Positions 2,376 through 47,155 of a stretch of 64,000 nt of DNA are shown one piece after another. The DNA lies in the NCBI RefSeq assembly GCF_001724135.1, contig NZ_MEDS01000025.1, forward strand, positions 1-64,000, read 5' to 3'. The notes beneath the pieces were generated by a model. That model saw only the letters and a program-made list of their open reading frames with translations. It did not search any database and was not told the DNA's origin. Source of the DNA: Comamonas sp. SCN 65-56. GTDB lineage: Bacteria > Pseudomonadota > Gammaproteobacteria > Burkholderiales > Burkholderiaceae_C. How positions within the stretch are numbered: position 1 is the stretch's first letter; every line of letters starts with the position of its first letter. The position numbers and the translations under genes are program-made.

Positions 2376-2462
2376 GATGGTCTTTCGTTAACGGGCAAAA
2401 GCCCGGCCGCCGGAAATCGGCGGTGTCGGGCTTCCGGCCTTCGAGGAAAATGGGGATGGGAC

Positions 2463-2936
2463 TTAGAAACGGAAGTGGCTGAAGGCCTTGTTCGCCTCGG
2501 CCATGCGGTGCACCTCATCACGGCGCTTCATCGCACCTCCGCGGCCTTCGGTGGCTTCCATCAATTCATTGGCCAAGCGCTGCGCCATGGATTTTTCGCC
2601 ACGCTTGCGCGCCGCTTCCTTGATCCAGCGCATCGACAGCGCCAGACGGCGCACCGGGCGCACTTCCACGGGCACCTGGTAGTTGGCACCACCCACGCGG
2701 CGGGATTTGACTTCCACCATGGGCTTGACGTTATTGATGGCCGTGGTGAACACCTCCAGGGAGTTCTTCTCGGGCTGCTTCTTCTCGATCAGTTCCAGAG
2801 CGCCGTAAATGATGCGCTCGGCCACTGCTTTTTTGCCGCCTTCCATGATGACGTTCATGAATTTGGACAGCTCTACATTGCCGAACTTTGGATCCGGCAG
2901 GATTTCACGTTTGGGGACTTCGCGACGACGTGGCAT
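2463..2936 (-). CDS. rpsG: 30S ribosomal protein S7
   Basis: This 157-residue protein begins [20 protein letters not shown], the standard S7 N-terminus, and has normal bacterial length. S7 nucleates assembly of the 3' domain of 16S rRNA and lies at the mRNA exit channel. It is the second gene of the str operon, between rpsL and fusA. In other bacteria S7 autoregulates the operon by binding the rpsL-rpsG intercistronic mRNA; no such element was resolved here. Confidence 0.98.
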
Positions 2937-3094
2937 TTTTTACCTCTATCTTGCTTCAGTTGGCACCATTTCAGGCACCGCGAGAGCCATCAGGACTCTC
3001 ACTTACTCGACCCGCGCACACCATGCACGTTGGGGTCACTGCGCTGCACCGCCGCGCCACGCGACAGACAGCACCGAAAAACGAAAACCTGGAA

Positions 3095-3472
3095 TTACTT
3101 GGCCTTCGGACGCTTGGCACCGTACTTGGAGCGCGATTGCTTGCGATCCTTGACGCCTTGCAGGTCGAGCGAACCACGCACGATGTGGTAACGCACACCA
3201 GGCAAGTCCTTGACACGACCACCACGCACCAGCACCACACTGTGCTCTTGCAGGTTGTGACCTTCACCCCCGATATACGAGATGACCTCGAAACCATTGG
3301 TCAGGCGCACCTTGGCAACCTTGCGCAAAGCGGAGTTCGGCTTCTTCGGCGTCGTGGTGTACACACGAGTGCACACACCGCGCCGCTGCGGGCAGTTCTC
3401 CATGGCAGGACTCTTGGATTTGACAACTTCGACCGTGCGGCCCTGACGCACGAGTTGGTTAATGGTTGGCAT
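3095..3472 (-). CDS. rpsL: 30S ribosomal protein S12
   Basis: This 125-residue S12 starts at [12 protein letters not shown]. The reading frame is open 14 codons further upstream, but MPTINQL is the universal S12 start, so 3472 is chosen. The decoding-centre loop [20 protein letters not shown] carries lysines of the sort altered in streptomycin-resistant mutants; here they look wild type. S12 acts in tRNA selection at the A site. It is the first gene of the str operon, with a good sigma-70-like promoter 88-116 bp upstream (3560-3588). Confidence 0.97.
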
Positions 3473-3559
3473 TAATAAAACGTCCCTGAAACGTGAATTC
3501 TCTGGCCCAAGCATCGAAAAGCACGAGCCACCCCGTCCAACAATTTGGAAAAGCCTTGT

Positions 3560-3588
3560 AGTTTACTGCAACCGGCTGCGAATATCAA
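3560..3588 (-). promoter_or_regulatory. Predicted sigma-70 promoter of the str operon
   Basis: On the minus strand, TTGATA (3588-3583) and TAAACT (3565-3560) are separated by exactly 17 nt. The predicted transcription start lies about 80 nt upstream of the rpsL ATG at 3472. Placement ahead of a highly expressed ribosomal operon supports the call. No start-site data are available. Confidence 0.6.
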
Positions 3589-3616
3589 TACGCACCGCCA
3601 AGACCAGGGGGATGCA

Positions 3617-3656
3617 GTGGTGGCACCACGCCAACGCCAGCGCGTGGTACTACCGC
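3617..3656. promoter_or_regulatory. Two tandem GTGGT-N3-ACCRC dyads upstream of haoA
   Basis: Two copies of the dyad GTGGT-N3-ACCRC lie at 3617-3629 (GTGGTGGCACCAC) and 3644-3656 (GTGGTACTACCGC). Their centres are 27 bp apart, and they sit 54-93 bp upstream of the haoA ATG at 3710. Tandem dyads before a specialised operon suggest an operator pair for an unidentified regulator. They do not match FNR/DNR (TTGAT-N4-ATCAA) or NorR (GT-N7-AC). Chance occurrence in GC-rich DNA is possible. Confidence 0.35.
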
Positions 3657-3709
3657 AATCGCGACAGATGGCCATGATTGCTCAACGCAAAGCTCATTCG
3701 GAGGGAATC

Positions 3710-5464
3710 ATGTGGTCGCGACTCCTCAGCCTTTTCACCCTGTTGCTCTGCCTGACGGCAGTGCACCTGCCCACGCAGGCGGCCATCTGGGACTCCGTCC
3801 CCGACGAGCAGCTCAAGGCATTGAACTTGAATAGGGATGCATCCCCCAAGGAGCTTTTCGACAGCCTGTCCAAGCGCTACCGCGCGGAACTGACCAAAGG
3901 CAAGCATGCCAAGTTCTGGGAGCCGATCCCGATGGACATGTACCTCGCGCCTACCCTGTTCTACAAGGCACCCGATCTGAACATGGAAGTCACGCGTGAA
4001 CAATGCGCCACATGCCACAAAGATGTCACGCACGGCTGGGTGGCCTCATGGGAAAAGAGCGTGCACGCGAATCTCGATCAGATCCGCAAGTTGCCGGCCG
4101 ATGACATCAAGGCATACAAGAAAGACATCATCACCGAGGTGGAGGCCAACTTGCAGTCGCAAGGGTTGTTGGCGCAAGGCGGCCAGCTCAAGGACGTGGG
4201 TTGCGCCGACTGCCACATGAGCATAGGCGCCAAGGCCGGCAATCACAAAGATCTGCGCATGCCGGACCGCACGGTCTGTGGCAGCTGCCACCTGCGCCAG
4301 TTCGCAGAAGCGGAATCTGAGCGCGACACCCTCACCTGGCCACAGAAACAGTGGGACAAGGGCCACCCCTCCCACTCGGTGGACTACATGGCCAACGTGG
4401 AGACTGCCACGTGGGCCGCACTCCAGCAACGCGAAGTGGCGGCCAGTTGCACCATGTGCCACACCAATCAGACGAAATGCGACAACTGCCATACACGCCA
4501 TGAATTTTCCACGGTAGAGGCGCGCAAGCCAGAAGCTTGCGCCACCTGCCACAACGGCGTGGACCACAACGAGTTCGAGCAGTACATGTTCTCCAAACAC
4601 GGCACCCAGTACCAAACCAAAGGCCACCAATGGAACTGGGATGCCCGCTTGGCAGACCAGAACACCAAGGGCGGCTTCACCGGCCCCACCTGCCAAGGAT
4701 GCCACTTCGAGTTCAAGGGGCAGTTCACCCACAACACCGTCCGCAAGGTGCGCTGGGGCTTCCTGCCCTTCCAGAACATCGTTGACAACCTGGAAGACCC
4801 GTGGTTCAAGGATCGCAAGACCGCATGGGTGGGCACCTGCTCGCAATGCCACTCGCCCCGGTTTGCCGAAACCTATCTGACGATGATGGACAACGGCATC
4901 AAGGATGGCACCAAGCTGGTCGAGGAAACGCGTTCCGTCGTCAAGAAGCTCTATGACGACAAGCTGCTCGTGGGACAGAAGACCAATCGTCCGGCTCTAC
5001 CGGCGCCGGAACAAGATGAACCTGGCGGATTCTTCACGCTGTTCTTCGCCAAGGCCAATCAGACAACGACGGTGGATCGCACCTTTGCCGAGATGTGGGA
5101 ACAACACGTCGCGCGCTTCATGAAAGGGTTGGAACACGTCAATCCCGGCGGCTGGACTTACTCTCACGGCTGGAGCGATTTGATCAAGGACCAAGCCATC
5201 ATCAACGAGCAGGACACCCTCCTGCGAGAAAAAGCGCAGATGGAGCAACGGCTGCAAAAGCTCGAAAGCAAAGCGGGTAGCAGCGGCAAGATGTCATCGC
5301 TCGACAACCGCTCGCCCAAGAGTTTGTTCGCGACCCTGCAGGCAGACCCCTTGTACTCGGGAGGCACCCTGGCTCTCTTGGGCGGCGGTCTGCTGCTGGG
5401 CGGCATCGTAGGGCGGCGACGCAGTCACACTGAAGACCAAAAGACGGGGCAAACAGATGCCTGA
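3710..5464 (+). CDS. haoA: Hydroxylamine oxidoreductase, octaheme c-type cytochrome
   Basis: This 584-residue periplasmic enzyme oxidises hydroxylamine, to NO in current models, passing electrons through a chain of c-haems. It has a signal peptide (residues 1-24, cleavage near QAA) and eight CXXCH sites with Cys at about 99, 165, 190, 247, 257, 277, 328 and 377. D285-H286 lie 38-39 residues after the fourth haem Cys. Y484 lies in GGWTYSHGW, about 237 residues after that Cys, the spacing expected for the P460-crosslinking tyrosine (Tyr467) of Nitrosomonas HAO. A C-terminal hydrophobic helix (about 550-568) followed by RRR suggests a membrane anchor. The start at 3710 has GGAGGG just upstream; an upstream extension to 3545 lacks a ribosome site and would bury the signal peptide. 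It heads the haoAB-ccm cluster. No c554 or cM552 gene is present. Confidence 0.95.
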   Translation: MWSRLLSLFTLLLCLTAVHLPTQAAIWDSVPDEQLKALNLNRDASPKELFDSLSKRYRAELTKGKHAKFWEPIPMDMYLAPTLFYKAPDLNMEVTREQCATCHKDVTHGWVASWEKSVHANLDQIRKLPADDIKAYKKDIITEVEANLQSQGLLAQGGQLKDVGCADCHMSIGAKAGNHKDLRMPDRTVCGSCHLRQFAEAESERDTLTWPQKQWDKGHPSHSVDYMANVETATWAALQQREVAASCTMCHTNQTKCDNCHTRHEFSTVEARKPEACATCHNGVDHNEFEQYMFSKHGTQYQTKGHQWNWDARLADQNTKGGFTGPTCQGCHFEFKGQFTHNTVRKVRWGFLPFQNIVDNLEDPWFKDRKTAWVGTCSQCHSPRFAETYLTMMDNGIKDGTKLVEETRSVVKKLYDDKLLVGQKTNRPALPAPEQDEPGGFFTLFFAKANQTTTVDRTFAEMWEQHVARFMKGLEHVNPGGWTYSHGWSDLIKDQAIINEQDTLLREKAQMEQRLQKLESKAGSSGKMSSLDNRSPKSLFATLQADPLYSGGTLALLGGGLLLGGIVGRRRSHTEDQKTGQTDA

Positions 5465-41774: not shown

Positions 41775-42404
41775 TCAGGCCGGAACCCGCCACTCGCTGA
41801 CCTGCACCATGGCCGGATCGGTCGCATGCTCGGTCAGCATGCGGCACACGCGGCCCTGCCAGAGTTCGCCAAAGCGCGCCAGTTCGGCATCGCTCGCGTA
41901 GCCGCCGACGGCCTTGGGCATGACGGTGCGCATTTCGTCGGTCCACGGCACGACCGAGGCATCCAGCGACACCTGCACCGCGCGCCCGGTATCCATGCGC
42001 CGCAGGCCAAAAACGCCCTGCACCGGCTGATCGAACGTGAGCAGATCCAGACGCGAGAACTGCCCGCCTATGCCGTGAAAGCCGGTTTCCGCCGCTGCGC
42101 CGGTGAGCAGTTGCACCACGGTGGCCACCACGCCCGTCGCGCCGCTGTCACGCGCGTCGCCCATGAAGACCTCGATCTCCCCACGCACCGGCAACTCGTC
42201 ACCATAGAGCGCGCGCAGGCCGTTCAGCACCATCAGCCAGGTACCCGCCACCGTCGGGCACGAGTGGCCCGCCAGGCGCACGGCATCGGCGTAGTGGTAG
42301 GTCATCGTGCCGTGCAGCGCCGCGCCAAGGAACTGCGCCAACTTGTCACGCACCGTGATCGTCGGCACTCTGGCAAAAAATTCGGGAAAGTCTTCGCTGG
42401 CCAC
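41775..42404 (-). CDS. FmdE-like domain protein of the NnrS/ABC operon
   Basis: This 209-residue cytoplasmic protein contains GHSCPTVAGTWLM, followed by IEVFMGDARDSGATGVVATVVQL and LLTGAAAETGF. This spacing resembles the FmdE domain (GHxCPG...D...LTG...G) of molybdenum formylmethanofuran dehydrogenase operons. No C-terminal zinc ribbon is visible. The role is unknown. It is the last gene of a minus-strand operon with ABC importer and NnrS, separated from nnrS by 110 bp. It ends beside the fba terminator. Confidence 0.5.
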   Translation of the reverse strand: MASEDFPEFFARVPTITVRDKLAQFLGAALHGTMTYHYADAVRLAGHSCPTVAGTWLMVLNGLRALYGDELPVRGEIEVFMGDARDSGATGVVATVVQLLTGAAAETGFHGIGGQFSRLDLLTFDQPVQGVFGLRRMDTGRAVQVSLDASVVPWTDEMRTVMPKAVGGYASDAELARFGELWQGRVCRMLTEHATDPAMVQVSEWRVPA

Positions 42405-42514
42405 TGCATGCTCCTGTCGATGGGGGCGGCTCCCTCGGGGGGCCGCGCCGGGAGTTCCGATTATTCAGAAACCGCGGAGTCCACAAACCCATCAAGGTCG
42501 CAGCAAGCCCTCAC

Positions 42515-43744
42515 CTACCCCGGCATGCCGAGCACGCCGGCGCACCCCTCGCGTCCATCCGCACGCGGGCGCAGGAAGACCGGCAGCATGTGGGCGCACT
42601 GCAATGCAAAGGCAGCGCACCAGAACAGCGCCGCCAGCCCCATCAGCGCCATGCTGGCCACGCCCGCATAGGCCAGCGCACGCAGCACGGCCGCCACGCC
42701 CAACGCCGCCGCACCCCACGGCACCCAGGGGCGATCGTCCTTGTCCAGGCCTGTATGCGTGTAACCCGCAATGCAGACCACCACATAGATATTGAGCCCG
42801 AACACGCCCGTGGTCAGCAAATGCACCCCCGCGTTCGCACTGAAGCCGCCCGTCAGCAGCGCCACGCCGATCACGCCGTAACCGATCGCCATGAAACCAT
42901 AAACCAGATACAGCATCAGCGGCCAGCGTTGGAACAGCGGCTTGCCGACATGCCAGTCATTGAGCAGGCCGAGCAGCGCGCTGGCCGCGGCCAGTGCCAG
43001 CCAGGCACTGACGCGACCACCCGGCTGCCAGAACTCCGCCAGCGAATAGAGCGCAATCGCCAGCAGCGCCAGGTTGCGCCGGGGCGGGCGGGCAAGGTAG
43101 GGTGGCCTGTCCGCACCATCCAGCGCGTTGCGCGCATCGATGCTGGCATTGACGATGCTCATCGAGATGCGGCTCATCGCCACCACGATGAGCGCCATCA
43201 GCACGCCCAGCAGCAAATGCAGCCAGCGCATGGCTGAAGCCCCCCGCAGCGCATCGCCATACAAGCCGGCAAGCACCAGCGCGATCAGCCCCAGGACCCA
43301 CAGAAAGGAGACATGGCGGCGCTCGGGATCGCGCCACAGACGCGGCGCAAGCAAGGCCATGAGCCCAAGCACCAGCGCCAGGTGCGCCAGCCCCGCGACC
43401 ACCAGCCCAGGTCGTGGCCACCAGCCACTCGCCCAGAAACCCGCACGGCCCAGCAACCACAACAGCACCAGCGCGCGTACCGGCCGGGCAGCAAACGAAG
43501 GCGTATCGGTGAACTCCGGGACGGAGGTCAGGATGAAGCCCGCCACCGCCGCCAGCCCGACTCCCACCAGCAGCTCATGCACATGCCACACAAAGGGCCC
43601 GCCGGGCACGGAAGGAAGGGGCCAGCCCAGCAGCAGAAACGCGCCCCACAGCGCCATCAGCACCACGGCCGACAGCGCGGCCAGGCCGAAGAAGGAGCGA
43701 AACGGACACAGCCAGAGCGGGTGCTCCAGACACCACGGATTCAC
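42515..43744 (-). CDS. nnrS: NnrS-family haem-copper membrane protein
   Basis: This 409-residue membrane protein has about twelve helices. HVHELLVGVGLAAVAGFILT is the hallmark NnrS histidine motif. Further histidines follow, including GYTHTGLDKDDRPWV. NnrS proteins bind haem and copper and protect denitrifiers or pathogens from NO stress. The N-terminus carries HPLWLCPFRSFFGLAALS, typical of the family. Its ATG overlaps the ABC ATPase stop by 4 nt, so it is translationally coupled to the importer. Confidence 0.9.
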   Translation of the reverse strand: MNPWCLEHPLWLCPFRSFFGLAALSAVVLMALWGAFLLLGWPLPSVPGGPFVWHVHELLVGVGLAAVAGFILTSVPEFTDTPSFAARPVRALVLLWLLGRAGFWASGWWPRPGLVVAGLAHLALVLGLMALLAPRLWRDPERRHVSFLWVLGLIALVLAGLYGDALRGASAMRWLHLLLGVLMALIVVAMSRISMSIVNASIDARNALDGADRPPYLARPPRRNLALLAIALYSLAEFWQPGGRVSAWLALAAASALLGLLNDWHVGKPLFQRWPLMLYLVYGFMAIGYGVIGVALLTGGFSANAGVHLLTTGVFGLNIYVVVCIAGYTHTGLDKDDRPWVPWGAAALGVAAVLRALAYAGVASMALMGLAALFWCAAFALQCAHMLPVFLRPRADGREGCAGVLGMPG

Positions 43745-44592
43745 AGCAGCACCTCGCAGCGCTCGCTGGCCACATGTGCGTGCGCCAGCACGGTAACGCC
43801 CGCGCTCAGGCCGCCGTCGGGTGTGGACGAGCTGGCGCCTTGCAGCGGGGGCAGTTCAAAGGCCTCTCGCACCGCGCCCTGCGCCAGCACCAGCGCCGTC
43901 TGGCGATGCACCCAATCATCGCTGCGCTGCACGGCGGGCAGCGCCAGGTCCAACCGCCAGCAGATGCGGGCCGGTCTGCCCGACAGCAGCAGCACACTGT
44001 CTGCCAGTGCCACTGCCTCCATCAGGTCGTGCGTGATCATCAAGACGGTCAGCGAACGGCGCGCCTGTTCGGCCAGCAGCAAGCGGTGCATCTGATCGCG
44101 CAGACCGATGTCGAGGGCGGAAAACGGTTCATCCAGCAGCAGCAGATCAGGCTCCAGCACCAGCGCGCGCGCCAGCGCAGCGCGGCTTTGCATGCCGCCG
44201 GAGAGCTGCGTCGGAAACTGCGCCAACGCCAGATCGTCGAGTCCCACGGCATGCCCGATGACACGCGAACGCGCGATCCGCTCGTGCCCGGATACACCGG
44301 CCGCCTTCAGCCCCAGAGCGATGTTGTCCAGCACCGTCTTCCAGGGCAGCAGGCTGGGTTGCTGAAACAGCATCACGGGCCGCGCAAAACCGTTCTCGAT
44401 GCGGCCCCCGCGCACCGTCAGCAGTCCGGCGCACAGATTCAGCAGAGTGCTCTTGCCGCTGCCCGACGGCCCGACCAGCGCCAGCGTGTGACCTGCCGGC
44501 ACTTCCAGGCTCACATCCGCCAGCACGTCGCGCGGGCCAAAGGCATGCGAGAGGTGACGCACACGCAGCGCTGGCTGCACCGTGGTGCTCAT
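43741..44592 (-). CDS. ABC transporter ATP-binding protein (NitT/TauT family)
   Basis: This 283-residue ATPase has Walker A VGPSGSGKSTLLN, Q-loop LFQQPSLLPWK, signature LSGGMQSRAALARAL, Walker B LLLLDEPFSALD and H-loop THD. It groups with SsuB/TauB-like ATPases. It energises the adjacent permease and overlaps it and nnrS by 4 nt each. The C-terminus is about 30 residues longer than minimal. Confidence 0.88.
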   Translation of the reverse strand: MSTTVQPALRVRHLSHAFGPRDVLADVSLEVPAGHTLALVGPSGSGKSTLLNLCAGLLTVRGGRIENGFARPVMLFQQPSLLPWKTVLDNIALGLKAAGVSGHERIARSRVIGHAVGLDDLALAQFPTQLSGGMQSRAALARALVLEPDLLLLDEPFSALDIGLRDQMHRLLLAEQARRSLTVLMITHDLMEAVALADSVLLLSGRPARICWRLDLALPAVQRSDDWVHRQTALVLAQGAVREAFELPPLQGASSSTPDGGLSAGVTVLAHAHVASERCEVLL

Positions 44593-45404
44593 GGCGCGCC
44601 TCCATGGGTCGTGCCGCCACCGTCACGCCAGCGCTCGATCTCGCGCTTGATCGGCTCCATCAACAGATACTCCAGCGCCAGCAGCACCAGCACCACCGCA
44701 CCTATCCAGGCCAGCGTGCCCGCCATGTCCAACTGCGCGCGGGTCGTGGCCAGCTCGACGCCAACGCCGCTGTCGGACGCCAGCAGCTCGGCCATCACCA
44801 CCACCTTCCAACTGCTGCCCAGCGCCACGATCCAGGCCGGGAACAGGTAGGACACCACATGCGGCACATAGACATCGAGCACGCGCATGTGCCAGGGCAG
44901 GCGATAGACGCGCGCCAGATCACGCCAGCGCCGCTCCAGCGTGCGCGCGCCCTGCATGCCGCCGACGAACACAATGGGAAAACAGGCAATGAACACCGTG
45001 AACACCGGCGTGCCGTCGCCGGTACCAAACCACAGCATCGCCAGCACCAGCCAGGCGATCGGCGGCGTGCCCAGCAGCACCGTCACCCAGGGCCTGGACA
45101 TCATCGACGCGGTCATCGACACCCCTGCCGCCACACCCAGCAGGCTGCCAGCCAGCACCGCGAGTGCCAGGCCGATGAAGGCGCGCCGCCCGCTGATCGC
45201 CAGCGCAGGCCAGAGTTCACCACCACGCCCCGCCCAGGCCAGCAGCTGCTGACCCGCTTGCATAGGCGTGGGCAGCACCAGCGGCCCGTAGACCGCGGCG
45301 AGCGCCTCCCATAGCGCGACCATCAGGAACAGGCTGGAAACGGCGCCCCAGCCACTCCAGAGGTAGCCCGGGATGCCGAGAAACCAGCGACGCAGCAGGC
45401 TCAT
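44589..45404 (-). CDS. ABC transporter permease (NitT/TauT family)
   Basis: This 271-residue permease has about six helices and the EAA-like cytoplasmic loop around GARTLERRWRDLARVYRLP. It forms the channel of the importer with the ATPase downstream and the binding protein upstream. The start at 45404 (MSLLRRWFLG) is 7 nt past the binding-protein stop; the longer frame to 45521 overlaps that gene. Confidence 0.87.
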   Translation of the reverse strand: MSLLRRWFLGIPGYLWSGWGAVSSLFLMVALWEALAAVYGPLVLPTPMQAGQQLLAWAGRGGELWPALAISGRRAFIGLALAVLAGSLLGVAAGVSMTASMMSRPWVTVLLGTPPIAWLVLAMLWFGTGDGTPVFTVFIACFPIVFVGGMQGARTLERRWRDLARVYRLPWHMRVLDVYVPHVVSYLFPAWIVALGSSWKVVVMAELLASDSGVGVELATTRAQLDMAGTLAWIGAVVLVLLALEYLLMEPIKREIERWRDGGGTTHGGAP

Positions 45405-45411
45405 GCGTGCT

Positions 45412-46446
45412 TCATCCGTAGAACCCGGCGTCCGGCAACTTGCCACCCACCAGGCCCGGCTGGCGCTCCAGCAACTGCTGGTAGAAAAATTCCAGATCAG
45501 GGCGCGCCTGTGCGGCGCCAACCCAGGCCATGGTGTCCCGCGTCGCCGCGAGCGCGCCGGCCACGCCCTCGGGCGTCAGCATCTCCACATGCCGTGCAGC
45601 CATCGCACCGCAGGGTTCGGGGTGTTCCTGGCACCACTTCAGCGCCTTGGCATGCTCCTGTTCAAAGCGCACCAGCAATGCCGCATCCTCACACACCCCC
45701 TTGAGCGCTGCCACACCCGCCTGCGCAATGCGCGGCGGACGCTTGAAAACCCGCCCCCATTCCTGCTGCAAATCCACGCTGCGGTACAAATCCGGTGCAA
45801 TGACCTTCACCGGAAACGAATGCGTCTTGCGCAAGCCCATGGATACCGCGGGCTCAGCCAGCAGCGCATGATCGGCCCGGCGCGTGATGAGCAGCTGCAT
45901 GGCGTCAATCGGCGAGGCCACATAGCGCAGCTTGATGTCGCTGCCCACCTTGATGCCCTGCTTCTCGGCGAGCAACTGGAACACGATGTCCGGCATGTCG
46001 CCACGGAATGGCATCACCACCTCCTTGCCACGAAAATCCGCCAAGGTGCGCAGACCCTGGTCACGTGAGACCATCCACAGCAATCCCCAGGTGGTGATGT
46101 CCAGCAGCTTCAGCGGCACACCCCGGTTGTAGAGGTTGGCGGCGACATTGCTGGGCATTGCCATGAGATCCACCGCATCGCCAATGGCCATGGCGCGCAG
46201 CTGGTCGGGGCTCTTCCAGGTGGTGAACTCCACCTTGTCCGCAACGTCGGCCAGGGCGCCGCTGTCGGCGATGCGCATGAGTGGATACGACACCAGCGCA
46301 AACGGTCCGGCCAGGGTCAGCTTCGCCCGCCTGGCTGGCGCCGCATGGGCGAGTGGCACCTGGCCCATGCCCAGCGCTGCCATGGCTGCAGCACTGGCGA
46401 GCCATCGCCGCCGCCGCATGCCTTTCATCTTTGCAGATTCCGTCAT
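45412..46446 (-). CDS. ABC transporter substrate-binding protein (NitT/TauT family)
   Basis: This 344-residue exported protein has a very basic MRRRRWLASAAAMAALGMG signal region, Sec or possibly Tat, with cleavage near AHA. The mature domain has LADFRGKEVVMPFRGDMPDIV and ARHVEMLTPEGVAGAL, as in SsuA/TauA/NMT1 relatives. The ligand is unknown; the neighbours (NnrS, FmdE-like) hint at a metal, cofactor precursor or N/S compound. The start could be 46446, 46428 or 46419. It is the first gene of the operon, divergent from the histidine phosphatase. Confidence 0.82.
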   Translation of the reverse strand: MTESAKMKGMRRRRWLASAAAMAALGMGQVPLAHAAPARRAKLTLAGPFALVSYPLMRIADSGALADVADKVEFTTWKSPDQLRAMAIGDAVDLMAMPSNVAANLYNRGVPLKLLDITTWGLLWMVSRDQGLRTLADFRGKEVVMPFRGDMPDIVFQLLAEKQGIKVGSDIKLRYVASPIDAMQLLITRRADHALLAEPAVSMGLRKTHSFPVKVIAPDLYRSVDLQQEWGRVFKRPPRIAQAGVAALKGVCEDAALLVRFEQEHAKALKWCQEHPEPCGAMAARHVEMLTPEGVAGALAATRDTMAWVGAAQARPDLEFFYQQLLERQPGLVGGKLPDAGFYG

Positions 46447-46510: not shown

Positions 46511-47155
46511 ATGCAAGAGCCCACCCGCATCATTGCCATTCGCCATGGCGAGACCGCATGGAACGCCCAAGGGCGCATTCAAGGCCACCGGGACATTGCG
46601 CTCAACGCCACCGGCATGCAGCAGGCCCGCCAGCTGGGAAAAGCGCTGGACAGCACAACGCTGGATTGCATCTACAGCAGCGACCTGCAGCGCGCCATGG
46701 CGACCGCCGAGGCGCTTGCGCTGGCCACCGGCGCGCCCATCGTGCCCGAGCCCGGTTTGCGCGAACGCTGCTTTGGCGAGTATGAAGGGCTCACCTTCGC
46801 CGAGGTAGAACGCGACGCGCCGGACCATGCACGGCTGTGGCGCGTGCGCGACCCGGTGTATGCACCGCGCGGCGGCGAATCACTGATGGCATTGCAGCAA
46901 CGCATCACCGAGGCGATCGATCGCATTGCCGCACGTCACGGCGGACAACTGATCGCGCTGGTCGCGCATGGCGGCGTGCTGGACATGCTCTACCGGCTGG
47001 CAACGCACCAACATCTGCAGGCGCCGCGCACATGGCAACTGGACAACGCCGCCATCAACCGCTTGCTCTGGAGCCGGGGTTCCGGCCTGGCCCTGGTCGG
47101 CTGGGGCGACGTGCAGCACCTCGAAGGCGCAGCCCGCGACGAGTTGCACGATTGA
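46511..47155 (+). CDS. Histidine phosphatase family protein (phosphoglycerate mutase-like)
   Basis: This 214-residue cytoplasmic phosphatase has the RHG motif IAIRHGETAWNAQGRIQGH, YSSDLQRAMATAEALA, a phosphate-pocket ERCFGEYEG and VAHGGVLDML. It resembles GpmB/CobC-type enzymes; the true substrate is uncertain. The start MQEPTRI at 46511 is used; the upstream open frame is antisense to the binding-protein gene. It lies 19 bp from the convergent cheB. Confidence 0.85.
   Translation: MQEPTRIIAIRHGETAWNAQGRIQGHRDIALNATGMQQARQLGKALDSTTLDCIYSSDLQRAMATAEALALATGAPIVPEPGLRERCFGEYEGLTFAEVERDAPDHARLWRVRDPVYAPRGGESLMALQQRITEAIDRIAARHGGQLIALVAHGGVLDMLYRLATHQHLQAPRTWQLDNAAINRLLWSRGSGLALVGWGDVQHLEGAARDELHD

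What the first reader, a model, noticed from the sequence alone, without database searches (positions are those of the whole stretch)
41775..46446. ABC importer-NnrS-FmdE-like operon: candidate undescribed nitrosative-stress or cofactor system
Five minus-strand genes encode a binding protein, permease, ATPase (overlapping), NnrS (overlapping the ATPase) and an FmdE-like protein. Translational coupling of NnrS to an importer of unknown ligand suggests the importer supplies something NnrS or the FmdE protein needs, such as a metal, a haem-related compound or a sulfur/nitrogen compound. FmdE-like domains occur in molybdenum-enzyme operons. The module could protect from NO made by the HAO encoded 37 kb away.
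Basis: partly seen in the sequence, partly recalled or inferred. Interest (0 to 1): 0.62.

Follow-up and report, generated by a model that had tools for sequence, protein, structure and literature searches.

The report
NnrS-coupled ABC importer with FmdE-like protein
A row of five bacterial genes joins a nutrient importer to NnrS, a membrane protein known from nitric-oxide stress, and to a small metal-site protein; the importer-NnrS unit recurs in many bacteria, often beside iron-uptake or denitrification genes, which suggests a link between iron import and nitric-oxide protection.

Summary
In detail: five minus-strand genes (binding protein, permease, ATPase, NnrS, FmdE-like) at 41775-46446, with 4-bp overlaps at permease/ATPase and ATPase/NnrS. 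The FmdE call misses Pfam's cut-off by sequence, but the predicted fold matches all three solved FmdE proteins (Z 9.8-10.4, next 5.3). The five-gene order is kept in 8 of 9 genomes of the genus; Paracoccus has the same five genes in another order. The importer-NnrS core is wider: 19 of 23 complete importer loci examined outside the genus have NnrS beside them. All 27 importer-linked NnrS proteins tested group together with one other row, a NnrS abutting fur. A TonB receptor adjoins 15 of 26 importer loci, but none in the window's genus. Fur-box-like sites, ferritin, HutX or fur occur beside some; NO reductase, Nap, NnrU or Rrf2 genes beside others. Best reading: uptake of an iron-containing (or haem-type) ligand, with NnrS guarding incoming iron from nitric oxide and FmdE handling metal in the cytoplasm. 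Gene conservation is shown; ligand and roles are inferred. Copper is a serious rival. Nothing found supports the HAO or molybdenum-enzyme link.

The parts
45412..46446 (-). periplasmic substrate-binding protein (NMT1/SsuA-like, nearest to 3hn0); start uncertain (46452, 46446, 46431 or 46419)
   Evidence: 3hn0 phmmer 2.7e-13; 3hn0 Z 30.1
44589..45404 (-). ABC permease (NitT/TauT class)
   Evidence: BPD_transp_1 56.3 bits; ATG 7 bp after the binding-protein stop
43741..44592 (-). ABC ATPase, 4-bp overlap with the permease gene
42515..43744 (-). NnrS of the importer-linked group, 4-bp (GTGA) overlap with the ATPase gene
   Evidence: NnrS 259.7 bits; tree group
41775..42404 (-). FmdE-like protein (GTG start), 110 bp after NnrS

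Best explanation
The operon encodes the inner-membrane part of a high-affinity import system for an iron-containing ligand (ferric chelate or haem-type compound). In many relatives a TonB-dependent outer-membrane receptor feeds the binding protein; the permease and ATPase move the ligand inwards. The NnrS made from the same operon belongs to its own group and sits in the same membrane, where it would keep newly imported iron from forming dinitrosyl-iron complexes with NO made by denitrification (the role reported for Vibrio NnrS). The FmdE-like protein would be a cytoplasmic protein that uses its invariant His-x-Cys site to take over or release the metal. Shown here: gene set, conservation, NnrS group, fold, neighbourhoods. 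Inferred: ligand, direction of benefit, biochemical roles.
For: NnrS lies beside 19 of 23 complete importer loci outside the genus, in Alphaproteobacteria, in the window's own class (GTDB sense, Betaproteobacteria included) and in Campylobacterota. Importer-linked NnrS: 23 of 23 rows fall in a 24-row group with 100/100 support, and 27 of 27 in a 28-row group with SH-aLRT 100 when the four later loci are added; the one extra row is a NnrS that abuts a fur gene. TonB receptor adjacent in 15 of 26 importer loci. Iron or haem neighbours: ferritin, imelysin and a repressor that matches a Fur model below its cut-off in Nitratiruptor, HutX in Cereibacter and Arcobacter, an iron ABC transporter in Bartonella, a ferritin in L121 (140.6 bits). 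Fur-box-like sites (14-15 of 19) upstream in 7 of 25 loci tested and in the gonococcal locus (15 of 19); the FetA control gave 14. The gonococcal FmdE lies inside a fet-type siderophore-uptake operon. NnrS protects the iron pool from dinitrosyl-iron complexes (PMC9246220, passage). Most FmdE-family genes lie beside metal-ion transporters (PMC2954224, section 16). The host genome carries NirS and NO-reductase-type genes.
Against: The window operon has no Fur-box-like site (10 of 19; 55% of other windows do as well) and neither have L017 and L019; L023 is weak (11 of 19); none of the alphaproteobacterial plasmid loci exceeded 12. No TonB receptor was found near the operon in the 8 genus loci with the seeds used. 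Receptors are mixed: siderophore-, haem- and PqqU-like, and an OprC/'copper'-like type without a recognised plug; every receptor scanned against NCBIfam (14 of the 15 loci, one receptor each) was below the cut-offs, so they do not name the ligand. The binding protein's invariant residues in 8 rows include no Cys, His or Met. After 3hn0, whose ligand I do not know, its next fold matches bind sulfonates, PQQ and small anions. NnrS is missing at L179, L181 and L212, and cannot be judged at L121 (contig end). Most FmdE homologues (71 of 80 loci) have no NO-related neighbour within 5 kb among the seeds used.
Confidence: 0.42

Rival explanations
1. Copper importer: the system brings in copper (as a chelate) for NnrS itself and for copper enzymes of denitrification; FmdE is a copper-site chaperone.
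For: Receptors of L123, L175, L178 and one frame of the gonococcal L211 match TIGR01778 TonB-copper best (194.8, 177.7, 179.2 and 126 bits). NnrS is listed as a cuproprotein (PMC6769254, passage). Pseudoazurin adjoins one importer locus and NirK adjoins FmdE in Azospirillum; haloarchaeal FmdE follows an HMA protein and a P-type ATPase in 5 of 5 viewed.
Against: All these receptor scores are far below the 472-bit cut-off and the other receptors are haem-, siderophore- or PqqU-like. Fur-type sites, ferritin, HutX and fur point to iron. The haloarchaeal ATPases lack CPC, SPC or TPC (5 of 5) and have CPG (3 of 3 looked at), so copper is not certain there.
Confidence: 0.2
2. Importer of a metal-free organic compound (a sulfonate, quinone or pyrimidine-like cofactor precursor) used by NnrS, FmdE or anaerobic respiration.
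For: Closest solved binding proteins with known ligands are SsuA (Z 25.4) and PqqT (Z 24.9-25.3); some receptors resemble PqqU weakly; the Agrobacterium unit lies between U32-peptidase/SCP2-type genes and nap.
Against: Scores to the ligand-named binding-protein and transporter families are far below cut-off; iron-related neighbours recur.
Confidence: 0.2
3. NnrS acts inside the importer, for example as a haem/copper membrane redox component that reduces or accepts the imported metal, and NO protection is secondary.
For: Separate NnrS group tied to the importer; translational overlap with the ATPase gene; a fur-NnrS pair of the same group.
Against: No group-specific conserved residue was found with the cut-offs used; several neighbours are NO-related (Nor, Rrf2, NnrU).
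Confidence: 0.15
4. Chance neighbourhood or operon drift without functional coupling.
For: FmdE itself joins the core in few lineages.
Against: 19 of 23 loci in two phyla and one NnrS group.
Confidence: 0.03

Closest known systems
NnrS (Vibrio cholerae, Cereibacter; Pfam PF05940)
   Same: Same family over its full length (259.7 bits); His54 shared by all rows compared; NO-linked neighbours.
   Different: Belongs to a separate, importer-linked group and is coupled to an ABC importer; the copies I read about are members of NsrR, NnrR, NorR or DNR regulons (PMC1274295, passages).
FmdE family PF02663 (2glz, 2gvi, 3d00)
   Same: Fold Z 9.8-10.4; the His and Cys of the GHxC part of FHGHxC are invariant.
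   Different: First His of FHGHxC is Ala and no second Cys is invariant, so the four-ligand site of 2glz and 2gvi is incomplete; only two Cys in the window protein, so no Cys4 zinc finger; low sequence score.
NitT/TauT-class ABC importers (SsuABC, TauABC, PqqT) and 3hn0
   Same: Binding-protein fold (3hn0 Z 30.1); permease and ATPase classes.
   Different: Below every ligand-specific NCBIfam cut-off shown; usual partner is NnrS, often a TonB receptor.
Gonococcal fet-type operon (ferric-siderophore uptake)
   Same: An FmdE homologue (60% identity) lies between a permease and an ATPase gene in a TonB/ABC iron-uptake operon.
   Different: FecCD-type permease and Peripla_BP_2 binding protein; no NnrS match in that stretch.
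TonB-dependent copper receptor (TIGR01778; OprC/NosA recalled)
   Same: Best model for four receptors beside the importer.
   Different: Far below cut-off; matches of L123, L175 and L178 begin at profile position 126-140, and Pfam finds no plug.

Membership tests
NnrS (PF05940) | full-length profile match over curated cut-off | tested here: met
   259.7 bits against 28, positions 1-371 of 371
NnrS (PF05940) | binds haem and copper | not testable with these tools
FmdE (PF02663) | profile match over curated cut-off | tested here: inconclusive
   window protein 19.8 bits against 22.9, so it misses the cut-off itself; homologues in Neisseria 26.3 and Azospirillum 30.0 pass it; 10 of 10 aligned members match at E<0.01
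FmdE (PF02663) | alpha+beta core fold | tested here: met
   VIA Z 10.4, 10.2, 9.8 to the three solved members, next 5.3; Foldseek 2gvi E 1.3e-4
FmdE (PF02663) | four-ligand metal site FHGHxC plus a second Cys | tested here: not met
   A1 has AGHSC with His47 and Cys49 invariant in 10 of 10, Ala in place of the first His, and no second invariant Cys; site from PMC2954224 passages, where 3d00 also lacks metal in this domain. Hence filed as FmdE-like with a variant site
FmdE of methanogens | co-transcription with formylmethanofuran dehydrogenase | tested here: not met
   no such gene among the five genes; the rest of the window was not annotated in full
NitT/TauT ABC importer | binding protein, permease and ATPase of that class | tested here: met
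SsuA/TauA sulfonate binding protein | score over family cut-off | tested here: not met
   SsuA_fam 30.1 bits against 163.5
PQQ importer (PqqT/PqqU) | PqqT-like binding protein and PqqU receptor over cut-off | tested here: inconclusive
   fold Z about 25, like SsuA; PqqU model 45-119 bits against 1200 in the receptors it matched; pocket not compared
Fur-regulated iron uptake | Fur box upstream | tested here: inconclusive
   14 or more of 19 in 7 of 25 loci and in L211; absent in the window
Fur-regulated iron uptake | TonB receptor partner | tested here: inconclusive
   15 of 26 importer loci outside the genus; none near the 8 genus loci with the seeds used

The most novel reading that the evidence does not exclude
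A dedicated NnrS subfamily is a working part of a TonB/ABC iron (or haem) import system: iron entry and NO protection of the entering iron are one genetically coupled machine, with an FmdE-family protein as the cytosolic metal acceptor.
Probability: 0.3. Interest if true: 0.8.

Novelty: new variant of a known kind. Interest (0 to 1): 0.6.

Why it matters
NnrS and the FmdE family are old puzzles: NnrS is a member of many NO regulons (PMC1274295, passages) without an agreed biochemical role, and FmdE proteins have structures but no function that I found stated. A conserved operon that ties one NnrS group to one importer, often to TonB receptors and iron genes, and in places to FmdE, gives both a testable job: handling imported metal in cells that make NO. 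It also offers a genetic link between iron supply and denitrification, which bears on N2O release.

Tried and rejected
Viral contigs: no match to the FmdE-like protein. NnrR/FNR-type site (TTGAT-N4-ATCAA) upstream of the operon: best match in the window has 4 mismatches, best in the genus 2; rejected. FmdE-like sequence or profile against solved sequences: no hit; only the fold comparison placed it. Cluster analysis of the genes around 88 FmdE loci gave no specific partner common to most; the largest non-FmdE cluster is generic ABC ATPases (30 loci). FmdE versus NO genes: within 5 kb, NnrS in 4 of 80 loci, any NO/denitrification seed in 9 of 80, a TonB receptor in 8 of 80 (one of the 80, L024, is in the genus; rough chance estimate for NnrS P = 0.004, loci not independent), so FmdE is not a strict NO gene. 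Phyletic test in 274 class genomes: NO-reductase homologue in 9 of 12 FmdE genomes against 78 of 274 overall (Fisher P 8.6e-4), NnrS in 11 of 12 against 134 of 274 (P 0.002); relatedness was not corrected for. NnrS group-specific residues: none. Two contigs of G190 were compared to see whether importer and NnrS join: they share only a 34-bp repeat, so that NnrS is not shown to adjoin the importer. Gonococcal TdfF: reviews report TdfF as iron-repressed with unknown ligand (PMC9519893, PMC12748263, passages; a table in the former calls its regulation unknown); I suspected that the L211 receptor is TdfF, but the record is unannotated and I could not confirm it, so it is not used as evidence. P-type ATPase of haloarchaea as proof of copper: rejected.

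Papers. Passages only: PMC6710368, PMC9409073, PMC6769254, PMC4417242, PMC1274295, PMC9246220, PMC10256816, PMC9519893, PMC5808646, PMC12748263, PMC2662411, PMC12918729, PMC6288298. PMC2954224: passages and section 16. All others: search listings. That I know of no published description rests on searches (open-licence PMC only); most listed papers were not opened.
Full report
What is there. Five minus-strand genes fill 41775-46446: binding protein, permease, ATPase, NnrS, FmdE-like. The permease stop and ATPase start overlap (ATGA), as do the ATPase stop and NnrS start (GTGA). The permease most likely starts at ATG 45404, 7 bp after the binding-protein stop. FmdE follows NnrS after 110 bp. The divergent gene upstream is a histidine phosphatase (window 46532-47152, 205.7 bits).

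Identity of the FmdE-like protein. Its Pfam score (19.8) misses the cut-off (22.9). Ten of 10 aligned homologues hit FmdE at E<0.01, and Neisseria and Azospirillum homologues pass the cut-off. The AlphaFold2 model (mean pLDDT 81) matches the three solved FmdE proteins above all other rows: Z 10.4, 10.2, 9.8; next 5.3. The known metal site is FHGHxC plus a second Cys (PMC2954224, passages). Here the motif is AGHSC: His47 and Cys49 are invariant in 10 of 10, the first His is Ala, and no second Cys is invariant. It is thus an FmdE-fold protein with a reduced site. The G208 homologue (L123), which has no Pfam match, begins with what looks like a signal peptide (read by eye).

Conservation within the genus. 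Of 60 genomes searched (the window's own included), 13 have the FmdE-like protein: 9 of 9 in the genus and 4 of 51 others. Eight of the 9 genus members keep all five genes in order; one (L024) has FmdE alone. The four others have no binding protein or permease beside FmdE at the threshold used; one of them, L026, has an NnrS of another group.

Conservation of the importer-NnrS core. The binding protein is uncommon: 4 of 274 class genomes at E<=1e-20, 10 of 398 phylum genomes at E<=1e-25, both counts including the window's genome, and 59 of 72,556 plasmid records with the Paracoccus protein as query. I examined 26 loci outside the genus: Paracoccus (L111 and L125, counted once), L121-L124, L168-L181, L206-L212. 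The plasmid loci were chosen for spread, not at random: 16 of the 59 records were viewed, and the 18 Agrobacterium records are represented by one. Binding protein, permease and ATPase are all present in 23 of 26 (L212, a distant Collinsella locus, has permease and ATPase fused in one gene; incomplete: L123, L208, L210). NnrS lies within about 1.2 kb in 19 of these 23. It is missing in L179, L181 and L212, and in L121 the contig ends 80 bp after the ATPase. L170 and L176 have identical NnrS rows and may be one strain, so the independent number may be 18. Gene order varies: FmdE-DUF1971-SBP-permease-ATPase-NnrS in Paracoccus, permease-ATPase-NnrS-SBP-receptor in Arcobacter. FmdE joins the core in the window's genus and in Paracoccus (5 of 5 Paracoccus records have FmdE next to the binding protein by coordinates); in G208 it follows a second binding protein (L123).

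One NnrS group. A maximum-likelihood tree of 55 NnrS rows puts all 23 importer-linked rows in a group of 24 with 100/100 support. A quicker tree with the four later loci added (L206, L207, L209, L211) puts all 27 in a group of 28 with SH-aLRT 100. The one extra member in both (L189, genome G190) directly follows a fur gene (Pfam FUR 155.5 bits), the two genes abutting, and G190 carries the importer on another contig (L121). The trees are rooted at the midpoint only, the sample of other NnrS proteins is small (32 rows), and long branches and odd letter make-up were flagged for some rows. FmdE-adjacent NnrS from other genomes fall in several places (5 changes), so the FmdE-NnrS neighbourhood arose more than once.

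Clues to the ligand. A TonB receptor adjoins 15 of 26 importer loci (Paracoccus, L121, L122, L123, L168, L171, L173, L175, L178, L179, L180, L207, L208, L209, L211). They are of mixed type; all scanned against NCBIfam are below the cut-offs (L208 was scanned only against Pfam). That of L178 has no Pfam match and rests on TIGR01778 (179.2 bits) and likeness to the L123 receptor. None was found by the same receptor seeds in the 64-kb window or the seven other genus loci. Iron or haem neighbours: imelysin, ferritin and a repressor with a weak Fur-model match (L206), HutX (L168, L207), an iron ABC transporter (L209), ferritin (L121), fur (L202). NO or denitrification neighbours: NorCBQ (L170), NorCBQD (L176), pseudoazurin, NnrU and Rrf2 (L169), Rrf2 (L125, L172), nap (L174), NnrU and hemerythrin (L170). 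Fur-box-like matches of 14 or more out of 19 occur upstream in L018, L020, L021, L022, L177, L178 and L180 among 25 loci tested (share of other windows in the same locus that reach the same score: 0 to 0.026), and 15 of 19 in the gonococcal L211 (4 of 106 windows reach 14). L018/L020 and L021/L022 are near-duplicates, so about six independent cases; some gene starts were approximate. The window, L017 and L019 have none, and the alphaproteobacterial plasmid loci stay at 12 or less. The binding-protein fold is closest to 3hn0 (Z 30.1), then SsuA and PqqT; residues invariant in 8 rows include Asp, Glu, Arg, Asn, Gln and Trp but no Cys, His or Met.

FmdE elsewhere. In two Azospirillum records the order is nirK-FmdE-hemerythrin beside the nor operon; in a third, nirK is separated from FmdE by insertion-type genes. 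In the gonococcal record it lies inside a fet-type operon. In 5 of 5 haloarchaeal plasmids viewed it follows an HMA protein and a P-type ATPase. This agrees with the published remark that most FmdE-family genes adjoin metal-ion transporters (PMC2954224, section 16). Yet 71 of 80 FmdE loci without the five-gene order had no NO-related seed within 5 kb.

The host. The genome has NirS (509.8 bits), an 807-aa and a 499-aa frame with NO-reductase homology, a NirK-like match under the cut-off and three NnrS copies. NO is therefore likely made in this cell by NirS; HAO need not be invoked.

Mechanism. NnrS of Vibrio cholerae is reported not to remove NO but to keep the iron pool from forming dinitrosyl-iron complexes (PMC9246220, passage). 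An importer of an iron compound, co-translated with an NnrS of its own group, fits cells that import iron while making NO. This last step is inference. Copper remains a serious rival because of the OprC-like receptors and because NnrS is reported to hold copper (PMC6769254, PMC10256816, passages).

Novelty. Seven library searches showed no paper that describes the importer-NnrS unit or FmdE in denitrifiers, as far as listings and the passages read can show; open-licence papers only.

Noticed in passing
window 3497-5461 (+): Octahaem HAO-like cytochrome (8 CXXCH; Pfam Multi-haem_cyto 451 bits) in a genome that also has NirS.
   Followed up: partly
L115, L128-L131 (haloarchaeal plasmids): Conserved order regulator, HMA protein, P-type ATPase without CPC motif, FmdE in 5 of 5 viewed; metal specificity unclear.
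   Followed up: partly
L202 (G190:C51), about 2449-4061: fur gene directly followed by a NnrS gene of the importer-linked group; a Fur-box-like match (14 of 19) lies upstream.
   Followed up: yes
L123, L175, L178: OprC-like TonB-receptor barrels in which no N-terminal plug domain is recognised (profile match starts at position 126-140 of 637).
   Followed up: partly
L211 (Neisseria gonorrhoeae record): Importer-NnrS locus with an OprC-like receptor lying in two frames; may correspond to the orphan receptor TdfF, not confirmed.
   Followed up: partly
L170 and L176: Identical importer-linked NnrS rows in a Rhizobium plasmid and in genome G621; possibly the same strain.
   Followed up: no
L121 end and L202 start (G190): A 34-bp repeat, inverted between the two contigs, lies near contig ends; perhaps a small mobile or repeat element.
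   Followed up: no
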